64,000 bases of DNA from contig JAPPIK010000006.1 in assembly GCA_028820655.1 (NCBI GenBank), positions 46,841 through 110,840 on the forward strand, read 5' to 3'. Positions 47,823-63,373 of the stretch are shown here, one piece after another. The first letter of the stretch is position 1. Each line of letters begins with the position of its first letter. This DNA is from Candidatus Poribacteria bacterium (GTDB taxonomy: Bacteria; Poribacteria; WGA-4E; JAJDTR01). Under the pieces are notes generated by a model that was not told the DNA's origin, did not search any database, and saw nothing but the letters and a program-made list of their open reading frames with translations. A program made the position numbers and the translations under genes.

Positions 47823-48689
47823 CTAAATGTTCGCGAGAACAAAATCTCTTGGAAATACCATTACTTCTCGTACTATTTTTGATTTGTAGGCATTGTGTTG
47901 GATTGAGAATCCTCTTGTCTGCATTTTTGCATATAGATTATTGATGAACGGCACATCGTCATATGTCATAATCCATTTTTTGAACGATGATTTTTCTAAA
48001 AATTCCGACAGTTCCTCGTGGTCTTTCTTGTTGTAATGGTTGAGATATAAAGATTGACCCTTTTGAAAATATGGTGGATCAAGAAAAATAAAATGTTGGT
48101 TTGCATTTTTTCGTCGCTCAAGTTTTCGCAACAACTCTATCCCGTCCAGGTTACAAACCTCAATTTTATTTTGAAATTCTTTTATTTTTTCCAATCGTTC
48201 AATAATTGTATTTTTACTAAAGCGTGCGTCAACTTTCCATTGTCCAGATTGATTCATTCCGCCAATTGGCCCACCACTCATAATCCCAGAACGATTTGTT
48301 CTATTTAAAAACAAAGTGGCAAATGCGAGTTTCTTCTCATTTGTAGGAGAAGAAAAAACTGCTTTTTGCTTTTTCCATTCCTCAATTGTGACTTTCGTTC
48401 GCTTCAATTTTCTTATGAGATAATCCGTGTCCGAAACTGCCACTCTCCAAAAAGTATAAATTGCGTTGTCTAAGTCATTAATAGTGATTTTTTCGACATG
48501 ACCAGCAATGAGCAGAGCGAGAGAAGCACCTGCTCCACCTGCATATGGCTCCACTAAAATAATCTTTTCATTTTGCTCAAAGTTTTTCTCTATTGCGTCA
48601 AGTAATCTTGAGGCAAGACGGGTTTTGCCGCCTGGATACCGGAACGGACTAGGGAAACCCGAAAGTTTTTGGTCAGCTTTATTTTTCAT
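47823..48689 (-). CDS. DNA adenine methylase, D12 class
   Basis: PFRYPGGKTRLASRLL; FIFLDPPYFQKGQSLYLNHYNKKDHEELSEFL. Confidence 0.92.
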   Translation of the reverse strand: MKNKADQKLSGFPSPFRYPGGKTRLASRLLDAIEKNFEQNEKIILVEPYAGGAGASLALLIAGHVEKITINDLDNAIYTFWRVAVSDTDYLIRKLKRTKVTIEEWKKQKAVFSSPTNEKKLAFATLFLNRTNRSGIMSGGPIGGMNQSGQWKVDARFSKNTIIERLEKIKEFQNKIEVCNLDGIELLRKLERRKNANQHFIFLDPPYFQKGQSLYLNHYNKKDHEELSEFLEKSSFKKWIMTYDDVPFINNLYAKMQTRGFSIQHNAYKSKIVREVMVFPRDFVLANI

Positions 48690-49965
48690 TGTTTTTTGAG
48701 TGTGTGAGATCTAACATCGCACCAATGATTACTGACATGGCAACGGTTTGTTCAAAGTTAGCAGTGTTTGTATACTCATGTGCCCCAGACTGTAGTAGTT
48801 GAGTTAAACTCTTGGCATTGCCGATACTATTGTTTGCCAATGTTGTTTTTTGGTCCTTCGAAAGGGTTGTTTTTGCGTCTGTAAAATTACAGTTCACATA
48901 TTCTGCAAGTTTACCCATTTCAGAAGCTGCAGACTCAACAAGTAAACGTAAAGACGTTCTGATAATTGCGGGAAATTTCTTGGACAGCTTGGCAGATTTA
49001 CTGATATAGAAATCATGTAATTCTAGTATGTCCCTATAGAAGTCATTTGTATCGCCTTTGTTTAAAATCAAATCTCTACCAAAGAACTTCTGTTTCTCAC
49101 CTTTCTCTCTCTGCGTTTTTCTTGCCCCTCCTTCCTCGTTTGATTTTTCTACTTCATTTTCATGAAAAGGAAGTGTTGGCTGAATAGCGTCTTTTGGCTT
49201 GTCGCCAAAAAGCTCGCTCATAAATCTAATAGTCTCAGGCTTGTGATAAACATTTGCGACAGTTACATTGTCTTTAATAACTTTATCAAACAGTTTGTCA
49301 AGTCGAGCGTAAGACTCTTTTTCATCTGCCGTGAAAATCAACTTGCCACCGCAAACATCTACTCCCAAGTATGAACGGGATTCTGGATTGGACATGATAC
49401 GATTGATTGTAGATACTTTTAGTTTCTTTGTGTTAATCTTTTTATCTAACTCCTTCTGAACAACGAAAACGGCCTGCATTGCGGGAGAAAGTTTTCCCTC
49501 AAATTTATATGCAAACCTATCCTGTTCTGCAGTTCCCCAGGAATCTTGCCCGACACCGTCGTTTTTGCCTGTATGGTCCAACTTAATCCACTCCGCTGCA
49601 GACTTTTCATCATCGTAAACAAAAGACTGAATGTACGTAGGCGCGCTCTTTTTTGTTTTGCGTAGAATTTGAAATGCCTTTTTTGTTTTTTTATCTTTAA
49701 TCCAAGACTGGTCGTGTAAACACTTGATTGCAACTGTTCGTCTGTTGCCATCTAGCACACGATATTCTCCTGAATCTATCTCTACAACCCTAAAGTCTTT
49801 GGCTTCGTCTAGTCCATAATCTAAAATATGCTTCGCTAAATTTACAATTTCTGATCCCTTTTCTCCTAGCATCAAATCAATCGCTTCCTGTTGATTCTCC
49901 ACAGGATCAAAGCGGTAGTTTTCTGGGTTTACTATAAGCTTGCTGAAATGAATTGTTTTTTTCAT
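48679..49965 (-). CDS. ParB/Srx-fold N-terminal domain protein
   Basis: SKLIVNPENYRFDPVENQQEAIDLML; YRVLDGNRRTVAIKCLHD (ParB-like GNRR); overlaps the methylase start by 11 bp. Confidence 0.8.
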   Translation of the reverse strand: MKKTIHFSKLIVNPENYRFDPVENQQEAIDLMLGEKGSEIVNLAKHILDYGLDEAKDFRVVEIDSGEYRVLDGNRRTVAIKCLHDQSWIKDKKTKKAFQILRKTKKSAPTYIQSFVYDDEKSAAEWIKLDHTGKNDGVGQDSWGTAEQDRFAYKFEGKLSPAMQAVFVVQKELDKKINTKKLKVSTINRIMSNPESRSYLGVDVCGGKLIFTADEKESYARLDKLFDKVIKDNVTVANVYHKPETIRFMSELFGDKPKDAIQPTLPFHENEVEKSNEEGGARKTQREKGEKQKFFGRDLILNKGDTNDFYRDILELHDFYISKSAKLSKKFPAIIRTSLRLLVESAASEMGKLAEYVNCNFTDAKTTLSKDQKTTLANNSIGNAKSLTQLLQSGAHEYTNTANFEQTVAMSVIIGAMLDLTHSKNNEK

Positions 49966-54115: not shown

Positions 54116-54972
54116 ATGGCAGAAGAAAAACCACCTCGTGTCAGGAGCCTGACCAGATTCTTGAAATGGGCAGCACAATTCGAAAATGGAGAATATCTGT
54201 TTCGTGGTGTCTCAAACGACACTTACGAAATTCAGGCATCTGCAAGTCGTCGCTTAGACAAGGAGGACAGGAATCCTGTGCAACTTCTCAAAGTTAATCA
54301 AGATTTGATAGACAAAGCACGGCTTCTGGGACACGATCGGCAAGATGGACATCAATTATCCGCTTTAGAGTTGCTCGCGCAGTTGCAGCACTACGGCGCA
54401 GCTACTTGCCTCATAGATTTTATGCGAAACGCATTGGTCGCACTTTGGATGGCGTGTCAGCAGAGCACAAGACGAAAAAACGCCAACGGCAAAGTGTTCG
54501 CGGTACGGAGCGACAATCGTTCCCAGTTCAGAAATGTTACGCCCCAGCGGCTAAAAGACGAAGAGATTGAATTTTTCTTTAGAAAAGAGAACGGTAGATT
54601 TCCTCTCTATCAATGGCAACCCAAATACCAGAACAACCGCATTATTGCCCAACAGTCAGTATTTGTTTTTGGCGGTGCAGATGTTCCGGTAGAAGCGGAG
54701 TGTATCATCCTGGCGGGCGGTAAAGACGGCATCTTAACATCTCTAGATAAAATTTGGGTATCACTGAAGCGAGCATTTATCCCGACTTTGACGGGTTCGC
54801 GCGCTTGCACGCCTGGAATAAGCCATACATTGCGCCAGAAACTCCTGACATCGTGCAACGCGGAGTTGTAGCACTACAAGAAGAGAAGTTGACTGATACT
54901 TCTTCCTCCGCAGATGAATCTCTGTTGTCTAAGACTCCGACGCCGCCAAGCCAAGGAGGAGATGCGGAATGA
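54116..54972 (+). CDS. FRG-domain protein with an apparent one-base frameshift near 54752-54757
   Basis: EYLFRGVSNDTYEIQASASRRL; LLAQLQHYGAATCLIDFMRNALVALWMAC; NNRIIAQQSVFVFG; alternate frame restores GITEASIYPDFDGFARLHAWNKPY. Confidence 0.85.
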
Positions 54973-56513
54973 ATTCACGAAGCATAGAATATTTTGATGA
55001 AGCCATTGCACTGAAACCAGATAAGTCCACGCTCTTCACGGCACATTATAACCGTGGTGTTGCTTATTTCCGCCAAGGCGATTATGATCGTGCTCTTGAA
55101 GACTACACCAAAGCGCTTGAACTTAGTCTCAATAAGGCGGATGAGGCGGAAGTTTACTTTGACCGTGGCATTGCTCATTTCCATAGTGGCAAGTGTAACC
55201 TTGCGATTGACGACTACACCGAAGCGCTAAAACAAAAGCCCAATTGTGCAGAGGTCTATCATAACCGCGGAGTTGCTTATCGTATAATGGGCGATCTCGA
55301 TAAAGCCCTTACGAATTTTAACAAGACTATTGAATTGAAACCGTATTATTCCACACCTTATAACAGTCGCGGCCTGGTGTTTTATAAACAGGGTGATTTG
55401 GACCGTGCAATCAAGGACTTTACCGAAGCCGTTCGGCTAGATCCGAATTACTTCGAGGCCTTTTGCAATCGCGGGGTTGCTTATGATTATAAAAGTGAGA
55501 CCGATTGCGCTGTTAGAGATTACTCAAGAGCAATACAACTAAACCCCAATTATACCGAGGCATACTACAATCGTGGACTCGCCTATTGCTCATTGCCGGA
55601 TTATCGTTTAGCTGTCAGTGACTTTACCAAAGCGATAGAATTGAGATCTGATTTTGCTCAGCCATACAATAGTCTCGGAGTCGTTTACTCTAATAAAGGC
55701 GAGTTTGATAAAGCCATTGAGGTTTATTCTAAAGCGATAGAACTTAAACCAAACTTCGCCGAAGCGTATACCAACCACGGTATCGCATTCAGAGAGCAAC
55801 GCGAGTTTGAAAAGGCAATGGAAGGTCATGAAAAGGCGATAGAACTTCAACCGGATTACGCTCCCGCATATGTCAATCGCGGATTAGTGTATTACGATTT
55901 AACCGAGTACGATAAGGCGATAGAAGACTATGATAAAGCGATAGAACTAGATCCAAATCTCTCTCAAGCCTATAACAATCGTGGTAATGCGTACCGTAGA
56001 AAACGGAATCCTGACCATGCCATTTGTAACTATGAAAAGGCAATTGAGTTGAAACCGGATTATGCAGAACCTTATAACAATCGCGGTAGTGTCCACAGTG
56101 ACAAAGGCGAATATGACCGCGCTATTAAAGACTATTCAAAAGCGATAGAACTTAATCCAAAACTAGCCAAGCCGTATAGCAACCTTGGTACTGCGTACTT
56201 CCATACTAAACAACCCGATCTTGCAATGAAATACTATAACAAAGCAATAAAGCGTGACCCCAATGATGGAGATACATACTATAATCACGCCGAGGTTTGG
56301 TTAAGTTTGGGCAAATGGGACAAAGCCAGAAAGGATTTGGAGACTGCCAGAGACAAGGAGGTAGACATCATCGTTGCGTTTCGCAATGACTTTGAATGCG
56401 TCAAGGACTTTGAGGAGAAATTCGGTGTAAACCTGCCCCCAGACATTGCCTCAATGCTGACGAAGGAACCACCTGGGACTGCGATTAGATCAGAAAACCA
56501 ACTAGCCGAATAA
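54969..56513 (+). CDS. TPR-repeat protein
   Basis: ~12+ tandem 34-aa units such as AYNNRGNAYRRKRNPDHAICNYEKAIELKPDYAEP; ATGA overlap with the restored FRG stop. Confidence 0.93.
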   Translation: MNSRSIEYFDEAIALKPDKSTLFTAHYNRGVAYFRQGDYDRALEDYTKALELSLNKADEAEVYFDRGIAHFHSGKCNLAIDDYTEALKQKPNCAEVYHNRGVAYRIMGDLDKALTNFNKTIELKPYYSTPYNSRGLVFYKQGDLDRAIKDFTEAVRLDPNYFEAFCNRGVAYDYKSETDCAVRDYSRAIQLNPNYTEAYYNRGLAYCSLPDYRLAVSDFTKAIELRSDFAQPYNSLGVVYSNKGEFDKAIEVYSKAIELKPNFAEAYTNHGIAFREQREFEKAMEGHEKAIELQPDYAPAYVNRGLVYYDLTEYDKAIEDYDKAIELDPNLSQAYNNRGNAYRRKRNPDHAICNYEKAIELKPDYAEPYNNRGSVHSDKGEYDRAIKDYSKAIELNPKLAKPYSNLGTAYFHTKQPDLAMKYYNKAIKRDPNDGDTYYNHAEVWLSLGKWDKARKDLETARDKEVDIIVAFRNDFECVKDFEEKFGVNLPPDIASMLTKEPPGTAIRSENQLAE

Positions 56514-56553
56514 ACCGTGTCATCAGCTACCAAATCTGCATTTGTCATCCATC

Positions 56554-56985
56554 TTAACTGTTCTCCTCTTGATGCGGGCGCAACTTCTCGTCAAGGCTGA
56601 ACCTTCCCGCGCCAATCAAGATTAAACTCAAGAAAACGATTCCGAGTTCAATGGCATGAGAGGCGCCGCCCAAACCGTCGCCGCGGCTCAGATGGCTGAT
56701 CGCGGCAACCAGCATGGTGATTGTCAAAAGGATACAAGCCGGTCGAAAAACGACGCCGAGGATGAGACAGATGCCGCCGAAGAACTCCGAAACCGCCGCC
56801 ATGAATCCCCAGAACGCAGGCGCGAACCCGATGCCCAGACTTGCCATCGCGCCGCCGATCTTCTCCCATTTCTCCGGACCGTCAAACAGTTTCGGCGCTC
56901 CGTGAAGGATGAACATCAACCCGATCCCGATGCGCAGCACCAAGAGACCAATGTGCCTATGCTTATTCAAAAATGTCAACACCAT
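56554..56985 (-). CDS. DoxX-family membrane protein
   Basis: LVLRIGIGLMFILHGAPKLFDGPEKWEKIGGAMASLGIGFAPAFWGFMAAVSEFFGGICLILG. Confidence 0.93.
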   Translation of the reverse strand: MVLTFLNKHRHIGLLVLRIGIGLMFILHGAPKLFDGPEKWEKIGGAMASLGIGFAPAFWGFMAAVSEFFGGICLILGVVFRPACILLTITMLVAAISHLSRGDGLGGASHAIELGIVFLSLILIGAGRFSLDEKLRPHQEENS

Positions 56986-57045
56986 GTCACATTATCCTCC
57001 ATGTTTTGAATTAGTGATATCGAATCTCATCATAACTGCACACAC

Positions 57046-58221
57046 CTACTCTAACACCTCAAACTCCTCATTCCGCACAATCAACATGACGGGATTGTAC
57101 ACGGCATCCCCCGCGTCGTCAAATGAAAACCTGCCGAGCACCGCGTCAAAATCCTTTGTACCCGCCAGTGTGTTCCGAATCGCGTGCGAATCCGTTGACT
57201 TCGCACGCAAAATCGCATTCATCAGAATGTGCACCGACGTGTAAGCCAAAGCGCTGAAAACATTCGGCTCTCCGTTGTACTTCTTTCGATAATCGCGAAC
57301 GAACTCCCGATTTCCCGTAGTGTTCGCCGTGCTTGTCCAAGCCGTGAACGTAATCGCTCCCTCCGCCGCCGCGCCCGCCGCTTGCACCTCGGTTAGGGTC
57401 AGCAGCGGCGCAATAAACGGCACCTCATTCGGAATCCCGACTTCACGCCCCTGAACCAACACCCTCGGCAAATTCAGCGGATGCGCCGAGACGATGACGC
57501 CATCCGGATTCAAATCCTTGGTTCGAGTCAACTGTTCGGTGTAGTCCGTATCGGCGAGCTTGACCGTTTCCGTCGCCAAAACCTGAATACCCCTCGCAGC
57601 TAGTGCCTCCGAAAAGATAGCATCCGCGCTCCGGCAATAAGCGTCATCGCTGGTGGCTAACTTTACCACTCGCTGGTAACCCAACTTCTCATGCGTCAGC
57701 CTGACGCCCTCGGGAATGAGCTTGTCCACAGCCAGGTTAACGCGAAAAGCAAAATTTCCGATCGCGCCGAGTCCCTGCGCCGCCGCCGAGGGGCTAATCG
57801 CCACAATCTCGTTTTCCTGCGCGACGGGAAGCGCGGTCGGCGCCTGAACCGAACCCAAGGGACCGAGGATAGCAATCACCCTATCCTCATGAATCAACTT
57901 ATCGAAAGCTTCAGCCGATCCCTCTCCCGTCCCTCCATCGTCCTCCACGATGAATCGAATTTGCGCCCCTCCGCGCCGCGCGCTGTTAATCTCATCCCGC
58001 GCCAAATTGAACCCGTTGAGAAACCTCACCAAATTCGGATCATCAGGTCCTTGAGAATACTTGCCCGAAAGCGGCATAACCACGCCGATGAGAAACTCGT
58101 CCGGGAGTTGCGCCGGTGCTTGTCCGCTAGAAGTATTCGAAGATAATTTAGCGCAGCCGCAAAACCCCGCCGTCAGAACAGCTATGCCAAGCGATAACGC
58201 GATTTTCATGACCTGACGCAC
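57046..58221 (-). CDS. ABC transporter periplasmic (branched-chain amino-acid-type) binding lipoprotein
   Basis: LTAGFCGCAKL lipobox; IGVVMPLSGKYSQGPDDPNLVRFLNGFNLARDEINSARRGGAQIRFIVEDDGG. Confidence 0.9.
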   Translation of the reverse strand: MRQVMKIALSLGIAVLTAGFCGCAKLSSNTSSGQAPAQLPDEFLIGVVMPLSGKYSQGPDDPNLVRFLNGFNLARDEINSARRGGAQIRFIVEDDGGTGEGSAEAFDKLIHEDRVIAILGPLGSVQAPTALPVAQENEIVAISPSAAAQGLGAIGNFAFRVNLAVDKLIPEGVRLTHEKLGYQRVVKLATSDDAYCRSADAIFSEALAARGIQVLATETVKLADTDYTEQLTRTKDLNPDGVIVSAHPLNLPRVLVQGREVGIPNEVPFIAPLLTLTEVQAAGAAAEGAITFTAWTSTANTTGNREFVRDYRKKYNGEPNVFSALAYTSVHILMNAILRAKSTDSHAIRNTLAGTKDFDAVLGRFSFDDAGDAVYNPVMLIVRNEEFEVLE

Positions 58222-58508
58222 AGCGCCCTTCAGTCTTCTTGATGTTTAGAATCTTCTTCTAACATACGCTCAAGTTTGGTGCAATTATACCATACTATGT
58301 GATTGGTGTTTGTCGCGATTTTCTCGCATAAAATCCAGCAAACGAATGGATCAAGCAAGCGGCTAGCCTGTCTTGCTGACAAATTAATGCAATCTCACGA
58401 ATATCCACTTAGCCGACCCAACTCTATTTCTCACTACCATATCTTCCGTCCGTGTGCAATAATATTCATCGGCAATGCCCCAAAAAAAATTGAGGATGCG
58501 AGAACCAA

Positions 58509-60746
58509 ATGGACAACAATACAGATGAGACGAAAAAACGCCAAGAAGACCTGGAAGCTGCCCAAAGGTGGCTCGGCGATGCCCGCGAATGGATCAAATT
58601 GGCGGAACAGTTTAATAGCGAACGTGCAGAACGCCAGAATAGCAACTCCGTCGACGACCACAAGTTAAACGTCGCATATGCGTGCGTAGGAATGGCATTT
58701 CAGTTGGCGTACAATTCGCTGCTAGTTGCACTAGCGAAATGGCCGAGGGAAAAGGATGGGGCAGAAAAATCACATCGGAGGCTACCAAAAGAGACCCAAA
58801 TAAAAATAGAGAGGTGGATTGGGAAGGCAGGAACCGACAGCAGTAAACTACTGAAAAATCTCGACAACTACAAGAAAAAATACGAGACGAAAAGTGCGAC
58901 AGAGAACGAGAACCACAAGTTTAACATTTCAGCGTTGGCAGGAGTATTCGGTAAATTGATGAAGTTAGCCGAAAAAAATGTCATTGAGGCTAAAAACGCC
59001 ATCCATCAGAATCAACCCACTCCCAATCTTGATACCGTCCTTGAGAAAATTGGCGAGATAGTAAGAGCCTCTGAAGGTAACGACTATATCTATCGCGGTG
59101 AACCTGAATGCTTTGACAAAGTATCATCAAACCTATACCGACACTATGAAGGTGATATTGAGGCAGAACATTTTCGGATAGAAATTGCCCAAGATAACAT
59201 GCTGGAAGATGCCAAACGCTATGCCGATGAAGGGACTAACTTCGAAATCCTAACCCAACTGCAGCACTTCGGCGGAAAAACCAATCTCATAGATTTTTCT
59301 ACAGATTACCTAGTTGCCCTCTTTTTTGCTTGCGATGGGACTCATGACGAAGACGGTAGGATTCTCCTTTTGAAGGAAACTGAAGAGCTCAGAAAAAAAT
59401 ACTGCGTCACGCCACCACGGATTCCACAAAACCGTGTCATAGCTCAGAAAAGTAAGTTTGTTCAACCCCCTGAGGGCTTCATTCATCCAAGCAATGAAAT
59501 TGATGTTCCCAAGGGCCTCAAAAAGCCGATATTAGACTACCTGAGAAAGCACCATGGCATTTCCACTGAAACCATCTATAACGATCTTCATGGATTCATT
59601 TTAAATCAGAATCGTCATCAAAGCGCCTACACGGAGTTCTTCAAAGGTTTTACATGCCACGATCAAAAACAATATGACAAAGCTATTGAACATTATACTG
59701 AGGCATTACGGCGGAACCCTCAATTGTCAGAAGTTTATAACAATCGCGGAAACATCCACAAAATCATGAATAGGCATGACCGAGCCATCAACGACTATGA
59801 CAAAGCAATAGAATTGAATCCGGTTGATGCTCAGGCGCATTACAATCGCGGGTTGGCATACTACGAGAAAGGCGAATATGGTCGTGCTATTCAGGATTAT
59901 ACCAAATCAATAGAACTGAATCCACAATATGCCGCCGCCTATAACAATCGCGGGAAGGCTTATAGCCAAAAAGACGACCATGACCATGCCTTAAGAGACT
60001 TTGGCGCCGCAATAAGCATCAACCCAAAAATTCCCGAGCCCTATTTCAATCGCGGGTTGGCGCTTTACGCCAAAGGCGAATATGGTCGTGCTATTCAAGA
60101 TTATACCATTGCGATAGAGTTGAAACCCAACTGGGCAGAGCCATATTACGACCGGGGATTGGCGTACCAGGTCGTAGGTGAGGTCAATCGTGCCATTGAA
60201 GACTCTACCAAAGCGATAGAACTTAAATCTGAGTATGCTGAAGCCTATAACAATCGCGGTTTAGCACACTACCGTAAGTGCGACTATGACTTTGCGATCA
60301 GAGACTACGAAACGGCAATTAGTATCAACCCTAGCGATGCCGTAACCCATAACAATCGTGGAGTCGTTTATAATGAGGTAGGCGCGTATGACTGCGCCGT
60401 CATTGACTTTGACAGAGCAATAGAACTAAAATCAGATTATGCCGAAGCTCACAACAATCGCGGAATCTCCTACAATAAACTCGGCAAGCATGACTGCGCT
60501 ATCAAGGACTTTGACAGAGCAATTGAACTCAAGTCTGATTATGCCAACGCTCATTTCAATCGCGGATTGGAGTTTCTACACACGCAAAACTGGGAGAAAG
60601 CCGAATCTGACTTGGCGGTAGCCAAGAATAAGGGCATGGATGTCGTCGCAGTATTTCATCGACGCTATGTAAATATCGCTGACTTCGAACAAAAAAGCGG
60701 CGTGAAGTTACCGGAGGACATCGTCACGCTACTGCAACCAACCTGA
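58509..60746 (+). CDS. Fused protein: unknown helical N-terminal domain + FRG domain + TPR array
   Basis: YIYRGEPECFDKVSSNLYRHY; LTQLQHFGGKTNLIDFSTDYLVALFFAC; QNRVIAQKSKFV; HHGISTETIYNDLHGFI; then TPR units from FKGFTCHDQKQYDKAIEHYTEAL. Confidence 0.92.
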   Translation: MDNNTDETKKRQEDLEAAQRWLGDAREWIKLAEQFNSERAERQNSNSVDDHKLNVAYACVGMAFQLAYNSLLVALAKWPREKDGAEKSHRRLPKETQIKIERWIGKAGTDSSKLLKNLDNYKKKYETKSATENENHKFNISALAGVFGKLMKLAEKNVIEAKNAIHQNQPTPNLDTVLEKIGEIVRASEGNDYIYRGEPECFDKVSSNLYRHYEGDIEAEHFRIEIAQDNMLEDAKRYADEGTNFEILTQLQHFGGKTNLIDFSTDYLVALFFACDGTHDEDGRILLLKETEELRKKYCVTPPRIPQNRVIAQKSKFVQPPEGFIHPSNEIDVPKGLKKPILDYLRKHHGISTETIYNDLHGFILNQNRHQSAYTEFFKGFTCHDQKQYDKAIEHYTEALRRNPQLSEVYNNRGNIHKIMNRHDRAINDYDKAIELNPVDAQAHYNRGLAYYEKGEYGRAIQDYTKSIELNPQYAAAYNNRGKAYSQKDDHDHALRDFGAAISINPKIPEPYFNRGLALYAKGEYGRAIQDYTIAIELKPNWAEPYYDRGLAYQVVGEVNRAIEDSTKAIELKSEYAEAYNNRGLAHYRKCDYDFAIRDYETAISINPSDAVTHNNRGVVYNEVGAYDCAVIDFDRAIELKSDYAEAHNNRGISYNKLGKHDCAIKDFDRAIELKSDYANAHFNRGLEFLHTQNWEKAESDLAVAKNKGMDVVAVFHRRYVNIADFEQKSGVKLPEDIVTLLQPT

Positions 60747-61774: not shown

Positions 61775-62428
61775 ATGCCTACAGATAGACAACTCGAAGT
61801 TTACAGACAGTTAAGTGAGTCATTCCGCTTTCAATACAGACAAGAATGGCAACTGCTACAAGTTGGCACCGTCACAGGATTAGTGATACTCGGCGTTGCA
61901 GAAAAAGACCCAGAGCCCGTTTGGTGGCGATTCCTCATTAGTGGTGCGGTGTTTCTCGGTTTTTCCTACGCCATGTACCGCATGTCAAAAGGAAACAAGG
62001 AAAATCGTCCTATTTGGATGAGTTACGCTCGTGTCATTGGAGACCCAACAGTTAATGAGTTAGGTAATTGGTGGACGAGCGCCGCTGTTTGGGGGCGAGT
62101 GATTCTGTTTTCTGCTGGCGTTGCGTCACTTCTTTACGGTGCTTGGAAAGACTCTTCGATGCCTTATTGGTCTCAATGTACCATAACTGGTATCGTAGCA
62201 TTCGTGTTCTGTTACGCCTTTGCCCCATCGGGAGCTGCACCCAAAGGCACCAACCTAACATTTACATATTGGGCAAGTCGGGTGTGGGAGTATATTGTTC
62301 GTAAGATTGGACGTCCGTGGAAGAGGTTTTCTGTTTGGACGCCATGGCTTGTGTTTATTTTCAGAGTAATACTTTTCTTGGCTGGAATTTCCTTCATAAT
62401 AGTCGCACTTCGTGACTGCTGGCTGTAG
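61775..62428 (+). CDS. Multi-pass membrane protein, unknown function
   Basis: Intact 217 aa ORF with ~6 hydrophobic segments. Confidence 0.65.
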   Translation: MPTDRQLEVYRQLSESFRFQYRQEWQLLQVGTVTGLVILGVAEKDPEPVWWRFLISGAVFLGFSYAMYRMSKGNKENRPIWMSYARVIGDPTVNELGNWWTSAAVWGRVILFSAGVASLLYGAWKDSSMPYWSQCTITGIVAFVFCYAFAPSGAAPKGTNLTFTYWASRVWEYIVRKIGRPWKRFSVWTPWLVFIFRVILFLAGISFIIVALRDCWL

Positions 62429-62464: not shown

Positions 62465-63373
62465 TCATTCTCCCTTATACCTCTTTACCGGACTCCCCTC
62501 CTCAGGCGCCTCCCTCACATACCGCGCAGGCATCGCAGGATCCCGCCACCGCCCCGCCCGTTGCACCTCCCGCACCGATGCCCCCGCCTCCGCAAGCGAC
62601 AACGCGGACCCGGCACGCAGCGAATGTCCGCTGATAGAGCCTTCCACTCCCGCTTCTGCCGCCCGCCGGCGTATCGCTTCACGTGCCCCCTTAACACCCA
62701 GCCGGTCCTCGCTCACATGATTCTGAAAACGAATCCGCCGGAACAGAGCGCCCGAATCAACCCCCGTTCGCCTTCGATAGCGTTTGATTAACCGCCGAGT
62801 CGAGTCGCAAATATACAGAGCGGCGCCCCGTTCCTCCTGCTCGCTCTCCCCACTGGTCATTCGAAGCCCCTCCTCTCCGACATCCTCCACATCCACGGCA
62901 ACCACCTCCGAGATGCGCAACAGGCAATCGCTCATTAGGCTAATCATGGCGGCATCGCGCAAACCCGCCGCCGTGTCAGCCGATTCCGCTACGGCGCAAA
63001 CTCGCTCCACATCGTCCCATGTCAGTCCATCCACCCGACGGCGTTCTCGCCGCTTTCCCGCCTGACGAACATCGGACAACGCGCCCTCGGTCGATGCGCC
63101 AGCCACAGAATCAATCCCACGGTGCTCCGCCATCCACTTCACCGCAGACAGCGCCAGATTAATCGTCGCCGGCGATTTTCCCTGTTCATGCAGAAAACGA
63201 ACGTATTCCGCCAGCACCGCATCGGACAGCGCCCGCCCCTCAAGCCACGATTCCAGCTTGCGGGTCGCGTGCTCATACGCCTTCAGCGTGTTGTCGGATA
63301 CATCTGCGCGAATCTCCTCGCCCGTGCCCGATGCAATACGTAGACCTGTTTCCGACTCCTTTCCCTGTTTCAT
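62465..63373 (-). CDS. Tyrosine recombinase / phage-type integrase
   Basis: SAM-like N-term VLAEYVRFLHEQGKSPATINLALSAVKWM; LLRISEVVAVDVEDV; SGHSLRAGSALSLAEAGASVREVQRAGRWRDPAMPARYV. Confidence 0.92.
   Translation of the reverse strand: MKQGKESETGLRIASGTGEEIRADVSDNTLKAYEHATRKLESWLEGRALSDAVLAEYVRFLHEQGKSPATINLALSAVKWMAEHRGIDSVAGASTEGALSDVRQAGKRRERRRVDGLTWDDVERVCAVAESADTAAGLRDAAMISLMSDCLLRISEVVAVDVEDVGEEGLRMTSGESEQEERGAALYICDSTRRLIKRYRRRTGVDSGALFRRIRFQNHVSEDRLGVKGAREAIRRRAAEAGVEGSISGHSLRAGSALSLAEAGASVREVQRAGRWRDPAMPARYVREAPEEGSPVKRYKGE

What the first reader, a model, noticed from the sequence alone, without database searches (positions are those of the whole stretch)
54116..60746. Two FRG-domain + TPR modules within 7 kb, one split into two genes and one fused with an extra N-terminal domain
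Seen: an FRG-type protein (YLFRG..., LQHYGAATCLIDF, NNRIIAQQS) overlaps a long TPR gene by ATGA, and 2 kb downstream one 745-aa protein has FRG (YIYRGE, LQHFGGKTNLIDF, QNRVIAQKS) followed directly by TPRs. Both TPR arrays end in the same cap (DIIVAFRNDFECVKDFEEKFGVNLPPDIASML vs DVVAVFHRRYVNIADFEQKSGVKLPEDIVTLL). Established: FRG is a widespread domain with poorly defined function, often in accessory regions. Inference: the same effector-sensor module in operonic and fused form, possibly a defence or stress-response system with TPRs as the sensing scaffold.
Basis: partly seen in the sequence, partly recalled or inferred. Interest (0 to 1): 0.82.

Follow-up and report, generated by a model that had tools for sequence, protein, structure and literature searches.

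The report
FRG-TPR genes, likely phage defence
A sponge-symbiont bacterium (Poribacteria) carries two neighbouring genes or gene pairs that join a probable NAD+-using enzyme domain (FRG) to a long TPR repeat arm with a shared end-cap; in related genomes the same arm carries either FRG or the known immune NADase domain TIR and often sits beside restriction enzymes, so this is probably an anti-phage sensor-effector family, although one of the two copies here is frameshifted.

Summary
The anatomy is real, with one correction. Both FRG domains pass Pfam (2.5e-14, 5.7e-13) and match PADLOC candidate PDC-S15. Both TPR arrays end in the same cap. However, the FRG gene of the "split" pair is frameshifted near 54,750: the ORF carrying its motifs stops at 54,871, and the ATGA overlap with the TPR gene belongs to another frame. 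Orthologues with the same ATGA pair are intact. The host is Candidatus Poribacteria. FRG-TPR modules are common in its order, mostly fused. Subtypes A and B, as in this window, lie side by side more often than chance (8 pairs vs 0.6 expected). In relatives, TPR-cap proteins carry FRG or TIR. Of 117 type IIG restriction enzymes, 44 lie within 6 kb of an FRG or TIR-TPR module; other neighbours include Pycsar, AbiE and a type ISP RM. Some FRG- and TIR-TPR proteins also carry a TaqI_C DNA-specificity domain. Most likely function: an anti-phage abortive module, with an ART-like NAD+-using FRG effector and a TPR-cap sensor. Activity and phage phenotype are untested. The fused protein's N-terminal helical domain occurs only in this genus within the phylum and is only weakly HEPN-like. 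New variant of a known kind.

The parts
54116..54871 (+). FRG gene of the split module (FRG subtype A) as it stands: motifs intact (LFRGV, LQHYGAATCLIDF, NNRIIAQQS), reading frame shifted near 54,750, ORF ends 54871
   Evidence: PDC-S15
54752..54972 (+). C-terminal third of the FRG protein (NLGITEASIYPDFDGFAR...GGDAE*) encoded in another frame; its TGA overlaps the TPR start (ATGA 54969-54972)
   Evidence: same ATGA arrangement with intact FRG in L036, L037, L055
54969..56513 (+). TPR gene, 514 aa, about 12 TPRs
56361..56465 (+). C-terminal cap of the first TPR protein (DIIVAFRNDFECVKDFEEKFGVNLPPDIASML)
   Evidence: E 8.3e-19
58509..60746 (+). fused protein, 745 aa: N-terminal helical domain + FRG subtype B + TPR + cap
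58509..59012 (+). N-terminal helical domain (residues 1-168; conserved KWPR..DG...[ST]H.RL loop), found within the phylum only in this genome and its congener G001; weakly HEPN-like
59067..59603 (+). FRG domain subtype B (YIYRGE, QLQHFGGKTNLIDF, QNRVIAQKS)
59616..60635 (+). about nine TPRs
60636..60740 (+). C-terminal cap of the fused protein (DVVAVFHRRYVNIADFEQKSGVKLPEDIVTLL)
   Evidence: E 2.6e-18
48679..49965 (-). PD-Lambda-5 protein A; nearest known defence system, 4.15 kb upstream, with housekeeping and tRNA genes between
   Evidence: E 1.8e-69
47823..48689 (-). PD-Lambda-5 protein B (D12-class adenine methyltransferase)
   Evidence: E 2.3e-101
62465..63373 (-). tyrosine recombinase/integrase 1.7 kb downstream of the fused gene
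   Evidence: PF00589 4.5e-18

Best explanation
Both units belong to one family of intracellular anti-phage (abortive-type) proteins. FRG is an ART-superfamily domain that uses NAD+, and the TPR superhelix with its conserved cap is the sensing and holding arm that keeps it quiet until a trigger binds. Effector and arm may be one protein or two translationally coupled ones. The arm is a common chassis: in related genomes it carries a TIR domain instead of FRG. It is often placed next to a type IIG restriction-modification gene, which suggests a second line of defence behind restriction. Shown here: architecture, recurrent A+B pairing, FRG/TIR exchange on the same TPR-cap (and TPR-cap-TaqI_C) chassis, and clustering with defence genes. 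Inferred: NAD+ consumption or ADP-ribosylation, the nature of the trigger, and growth arrest. The split copy in this window is probably inactive as sequenced.
For: FRG recognised by Pfam and by PADLOC PDC-S15, a phage-defence candidate family (candidate status discussed in PMC12482510). A published prediction places FRG in the ART superfamily as an immune NADase (PMC9503650). The FRG model has pLDDT 90 and its 18 best PDB matches are all ADP-ribosyltransferases, though weak. The FRG arginine, QH, T.L[IL]D and R..[SA]Q motifs are kept from Poribacteria to phage and plasmid FRGs. FRG-A/FRG-B pairs within 8 kb: 8 vs 0.56 expected; FRG-A/TIR-TPR: 6 vs 0.31. Type IIG RM within 6 kb of an FRG or TIR-TPR: 44 of 117, with expected pairs of 0.83 or less per class. 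PycC: five of six copies beside FRG. Type ISP RM and AbiE next to FRG. Of 62 cap-TPR genes in nine genomes, 33 are FRG-linked and 10 TIR-fused. FRG-TPR-TaqI_C and TIR-TPR-TaqI_C share one specificity domain, up to 75% identical. An FRG gene sits in the P2 cos-proximal region, described as an anti-phage hotspot in PMC9122126.
Against: No enzyme or phage data. Fold matches are not significant (best E 0.09; no hit at E <= 0.001). Thirty-two of 42 FRG-A loci with full flanks lack the modelled neighbours. The window's own modules have no RM or TIR neighbour within the window; PD-Lambda-5 is 4.15 kb away with housekeeping genes between. The FRG of the split pair is frameshifted. Clustering in defence islands does not by itself prove function.
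Confidence: 0.6

Rival explanations
1. Toxin-antitoxin-like module: FRG is a toxin held off mainly by the TPR protein as antitoxin (in cis when fused). The role is plasmid/island addiction or stress arrest rather than phage sensing.
For: ATGA-coupled two-gene form in several genomes. Two of three FRG genes in this genome carry lesions while the TPR genes are open, as expected if the toxin can be lost freely.
Against: The fused form is the norm, which is unusual for a toxin and labile antitoxin. The same arm carries TIR and TaqI_C domains and sits by RM and Pycsar genes, which points to immunity.
Confidence: 0.17
2. Eukaryote-like TPR symbiosis factors: secreted or delivered proteins that act on the sponge host, as proposed for TPR proteins of sponge symbionts.
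For: The organism is a sponge symbiont lineage. TPR proteins are enriched in sponge symbionts and discussed as host-association factors (PMC8163846). The family is shared among sponge-symbiont phyla.
Against: No hydrophobic signal-like N-terminus in either protein (sequence). Neighbours are RM, Pycsar, AbiE and TIR genes, not secretion systems. FRG relatives occur in phages, a P2 cos-proximal region and plasmids.
Confidence: 0.1
3. Non-defence intracellular regulator or decaying genes: FRG-TPR regulates a cellular process by ADP-ribosylation, or is an accumulating selfish repeat family that clusters with islands only because both are mobile.
For: Many solitary copies. Third pair embedded among metabolic genes. 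Lesions in two of three FRG genes here.
Against: FRG/TIR swapping on one chassis and adjacency far above chance.
Confidence: 0.13

Closest known systems
FRG domain proteins / PADLOC PDC-S15 (single-gene phage-defence candidates)
   Same: both proteins match PF08867 and 13 PDC-S15 models
   Different: PDC-S15 matches cover the FRG part only; the capped TPR arm, the ATGA-coupled pair and the extra N-terminal domain are not part of them
TIR-TPR proteins next to type IIG RM in Poribacteria (found here), comparable with the TIR-STAND-TPR protein described in PMC9122126
   Same: NAD+-using effector domain at the N-terminus, TPR arm at the C-terminus; the Poribacteria TIR-TPRs share the same cap
   Different: FRG replaces TIR, and no STAND/NTPase domain lies between effector and repeats
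Pycsar (PycC + PycTIR)
   Same: found beside FRG-TPR in several genomes
   Different: no cyclase or cyclic-nucleotide sensor in the FRG-TPR proteins themselves
Type IIG restriction-modification (Eco57I/TaqI_C)
   Same: recurrent neighbour; TaqI_C specificity domain shared with some FRG/TIR-TPR proteins
   Different: the window proteins have no methyltransferase, nuclease or specificity domain

Membership tests
FRG domain family (PF08867) | Pfam profile match above the gathering score, with (F/Y)RG motif | tested here: met
   54.4 and 50.0 bits vs cut-off 25
ART superfamily | ART fold | tested here: inconclusive
   18 best PDB matches are ARTs, but E >= 0.09
ART superfamily | NAD+ binding and transferase/NADase activity | not testable with these tools
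   prediction only, PMC9503650
PADLOC PDC-S15 | match to the PDC-S15 models | tested here: met
   E 3.8e-24 and 1.5e-20
Anti-phage defence system | genomic association with defence genes above chance | tested here: met
   for the family in 73 genomes; weaker for this locus itself
Anti-phage defence system | protects against phage | not testable with these tools
   needs experiment
STAND/Avs NLR-like immune ATPases | NTPase domain between effector and repeats | tested here: not met
   no NTPase domain in either protein
HEPN superfamily (N-terminal domain of the 745-aa protein) | sequence profile match | tested here: not met
   no HEPN hit in Pfam or NCBIfam
HEPN superfamily (N-terminal domain of the 745-aa protein) | HEPN helical-bundle fold | tested here: inconclusive
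   helical bundle predicted, HEPN protein 4nqf at ranks 2-3 but E about 0.5
HEPN superfamily (N-terminal domain of the 745-aa protein) | R-x4-6-H catalytic motif | tested here: not met
   the conserved R80 and H89 have eight residues between them
Toxin-antitoxin pair | two small co-transcribed genes, toxin neutralised by partner | not tested
   the ATGA coupling fits; neutralisation needs experiment

The most novel reading that the evidence does not exclude
The capped TPR arm is a standard chassis on which NAD+-using effectors (FRG, TIR) are swapped. The chassis works with type IIG restriction as a second line of defence, and in its full form (effector-TPR-cap-TaqI_C plus an AAA/SMC-like ATPase) it reads specific DNA sites, so cell suicide is triggered by unmodified or restriction-resistant phage DNA. 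The window's two modules would be shorter members without the DNA reader, one of them carrying a genus-specific second domain.
Probability: 0.35. Interest if true: 0.82.

Novelty: new variant of a known kind. Interest (0 to 1): 0.6.

Why it matters
FRG proteins are widespread and listed only as defence candidates. Finding FRG and the established immune NADase domain TIR as interchangeable heads on one capped TPR arm, next to restriction enzymes and sometimes fused to a DNA-specificity domain, gives FRG a concrete and testable role. It also suggests that part of the abundant TPR proteins of sponge symbionts, usually read as host-interaction factors, are anti-phage sensors.

Tried and rejected
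HEPN identity of the N-terminal domain: no Pfam or NCBIfam hit and only weak Foldseek hits, so not claimed. Homologues of that domain in 85 genomes of the phylum: only the congener; the plasmid and phage matches of the N-terminal+FRG query (residues 1-370) lie almost entirely in the FRG part. Programmed frameshift in the split FRG: the local sequence lacks a fitting slippery heptamer in the zero frame and orthologues read through without a shift, so rejected. Matched DNA specificity between RM and effector-TPR: the effector TaqI_C domains resemble each other (46-84%) far more than the RM enzymes' own (about 21-42%), so not supported. BFVD fold search: no informative match. The paper in which FRG was first predicted as an immune effector (J Bacteriol 2020) is not held. 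A literature search for TIR, TPR and type IIG/target-recognition combinations returned three papers, not read further; none describes the combination in its title or abstract.
Full report
OBSERVATION. The region was re-read with ORF lists and profiles. The 745-aa ORF (58509-60746) and the 514-aa TPR ORF (54969-56513) are as described. Pfam finds FRG in both units (2.5e-14, 5.7e-13) and many TPRs. PADLOC matches both FRGs to 13 models of PDC-S15, a phage-defence candidate family. The first FRG gene is not intact: its motifs lie in an ORF that ends at 54871, while the conserved C-terminal part (GITEASIYPDFDGFARLHAWNKPYI) continues in another frame from about 54,750 and ends at the TGA of ATGA 54969-54972. 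Intact orthologues with exactly this ATGA pair exist in three other genomes (L036, L037, L055). The lesion may be natural or an assembly error; the other window genes I looked at read as full-length ORFs.

WHERE IT IS. Named relatives at 56-67% identity are mostly Candidatus Poribacteria, with further members in Latescibacteria, Caldilineaceae, Dadabacteria, Gammaproteobacteria, Nitrospirales and Gemmatimonadota, many of them apparently sponge-associated MAGs judging by their isolate series (the sponge origin is from my own knowledge of Poribacteria and of these series). Of 73 genomes of the order, 66 hold a relative of the first FRG.

ARCHITECTURE IN THE FAMILY. In most loci FRG and TPR are one ORF; in a minority they are two overlapping ORFs. 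In a tree of 73 FRG-A domains the window copy falls with three other split copies (100/97), and the split label needs three changes on the tree. FRG occurs in at least two subtypes, A (first unit) and B (second unit). Subtype B also occurs as a short FRG gene followed by a separate TPR-cap gene. Some subtype-A proteins carry a ~100-aa N-terminal domain with a weak Mrr_N-like match. The ~180-aa N-terminal domain of the window's B protein occurs, among 85 genomes of the phylum, only in this genome and its congener, 44% identical there. It is predicted as a helical bundle with weak similarity to HEPN proteins, and its conserved R and H do not fit R-x4-6-H.

FRG AS AN ENZYME. An intact orthologue modelled with 59 sequences gave pLDDT 90. 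Its 18 best PDB matches are all ADP-ribosyltransferases (ExoA domain III, Arr, PltA, ParT, cholix, TreTu), but the best E is 0.09 and none passes 0.001. This fits the published placement of FRG in the ART superfamily (PMC9503650) without proving it. Arginine of (F/Y)RG, the QH pair, T.L[IL]D and R..[SA]Q are shared with phage and plasmid FRGs.

GENOMIC COMPANY. Over 73 genomes, A and B modules lie within 8 kb of each other 8 times (0.56 expected), A and TIR-TPR 6 times (0.31), and B and TIR-TPR 5 times (0.63). A type IIG RM enzyme lies within 6 kb of an FRG or TIR-TPR module in 44 of 117 cases; by class the pairs are 21 FRG-B (0.83 expected), 21 TIR-TPR (0.43), 6 FRG-A (0.37) and 8 further FRG (0.11). 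The Pycsar cyclase is found in six genomes, five times beside FRG. Type ISP RM, AbiEi/AbiEii, an AriAB-like gene and TIR proteins are direct neighbours elsewhere. Expected values assume random placement in a 5.4-Mb genome and the hit lists were cut at about 150 rows, so these are estimates. Only 10 of 42 FRG-A loci with full flanks contain the modelled neighbours, so many copies are solitary. In this window the nearest known system is PD-Lambda-5 (47823-49965), 4.15 kb upstream beyond tRNA and housekeeping genes, and an integrase lies 1.7 kb downstream of the fused gene.

THE SHARED ARM. In nine genomes 62 cap-bearing TPR genes were classified: 23 fused to FRG, 10 downstream of FRG, 10 fused to TIR, 7 near such modules and 12 unassigned. 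In this genome the six caps belong to three FRG units, two TIR-TPR genes and one TPR gene beside a type IIG enzyme. TIR identity is firm (TIR_2 2.5e-16). Several FRG-B-TPR and TIR-TPR proteins continue after the cap into a TaqI_C DNA-specificity domain (about 1e-10 to 2e-16), usually followed by an overlapping AAA/SMC-like ATPase gene. These specificity domains are 46-84% identical to one another whichever effector is attached, and only about 21-42% identical to those of the RM enzymes, so the effector head appears to have been exchanged on one chassis. The window proteins lack this extension.

MECHANISM. The best-supported reading is an abortive anti-phage module: an NAD+-using FRG effector controlled by a capped TPR sensor. 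Domain content, exchange with TIR, and clustering are shown; catalysis, trigger and phenotype are inferred. An FRG gene also sits in the cos-proximal region of a P2-like phage, which PMC9122126 describes as an anti-phage hotspot. Rivals are a toxin-antitoxin role, a sponge-interaction role (TPR proteins are enriched in sponge symbionts, PMC8163846) and a non-defence regulatory or selfish role. In this genome two of three FRG genes are broken (frameshift here, in-frame TAG in the C61 pair) while their TPR genes are open. That fits a costly effector, but the numbers are too small to weigh.

VERDICT. The anatomy is confirmed with a correction, and the defence inference is strengthened but not proven. 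New variant of a known kind.

Noticed in passing
47823-49965, minus strand: Complete PD-Lambda-5 A+B pair between tRNA-Ala and tRNA-Ser genes (tRNAs).
   Followed up: partly
L145 8444-10485 (G000:C61): Third FRG/TPR pair of this genome, again with an ATGA overlap; its FRG carries an in-frame TAG.
   Followed up: partly
L297, L298, L299, L300, L301, L302, L307: FRG-TPR-cap-TaqI_C or TIR-TPR-cap-TaqI_C proteins, followed by an overlapping AAA/SMC-like ATPase gene and in some loci preceded by a type IIG RM gene.
   Followed up: partly
L209 1057-8759: Island TIR-TPR, FRG-B-TPR, PycTIR, PycC, TIR, FRG-A-TPR in direct succession.
   Followed up: partly
L069, L208, L212, L216, L219: FRG-B or FRG/TIR islands sit beside the same oxidoreductase gene cluster (MPLNRKVRYGMVGGGPDAFIGAVH...) in at least five genomes, suggesting a shared insertion site.
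   Followed up: no
L091, L093, L102, L103, L105, L107, L109, L112, L116: A clade of FRG-TPR proteins has a ~100-aa N-terminal domain with a weak Mrr_N winged-helix match, and its C-termini do not show the cap.
   Followed up: partly
L098: Latescibacteria locus with AbiEi/AbiEii immediately upstream of a split FRG/TPR pair 63% identical to the window's FRG, pointing to transfer between phyla.
   Followed up: partly
61775-62428, plus strand: 217-aa probable membrane protein of no known family between the fused gene and the integrase.
   Followed up: no
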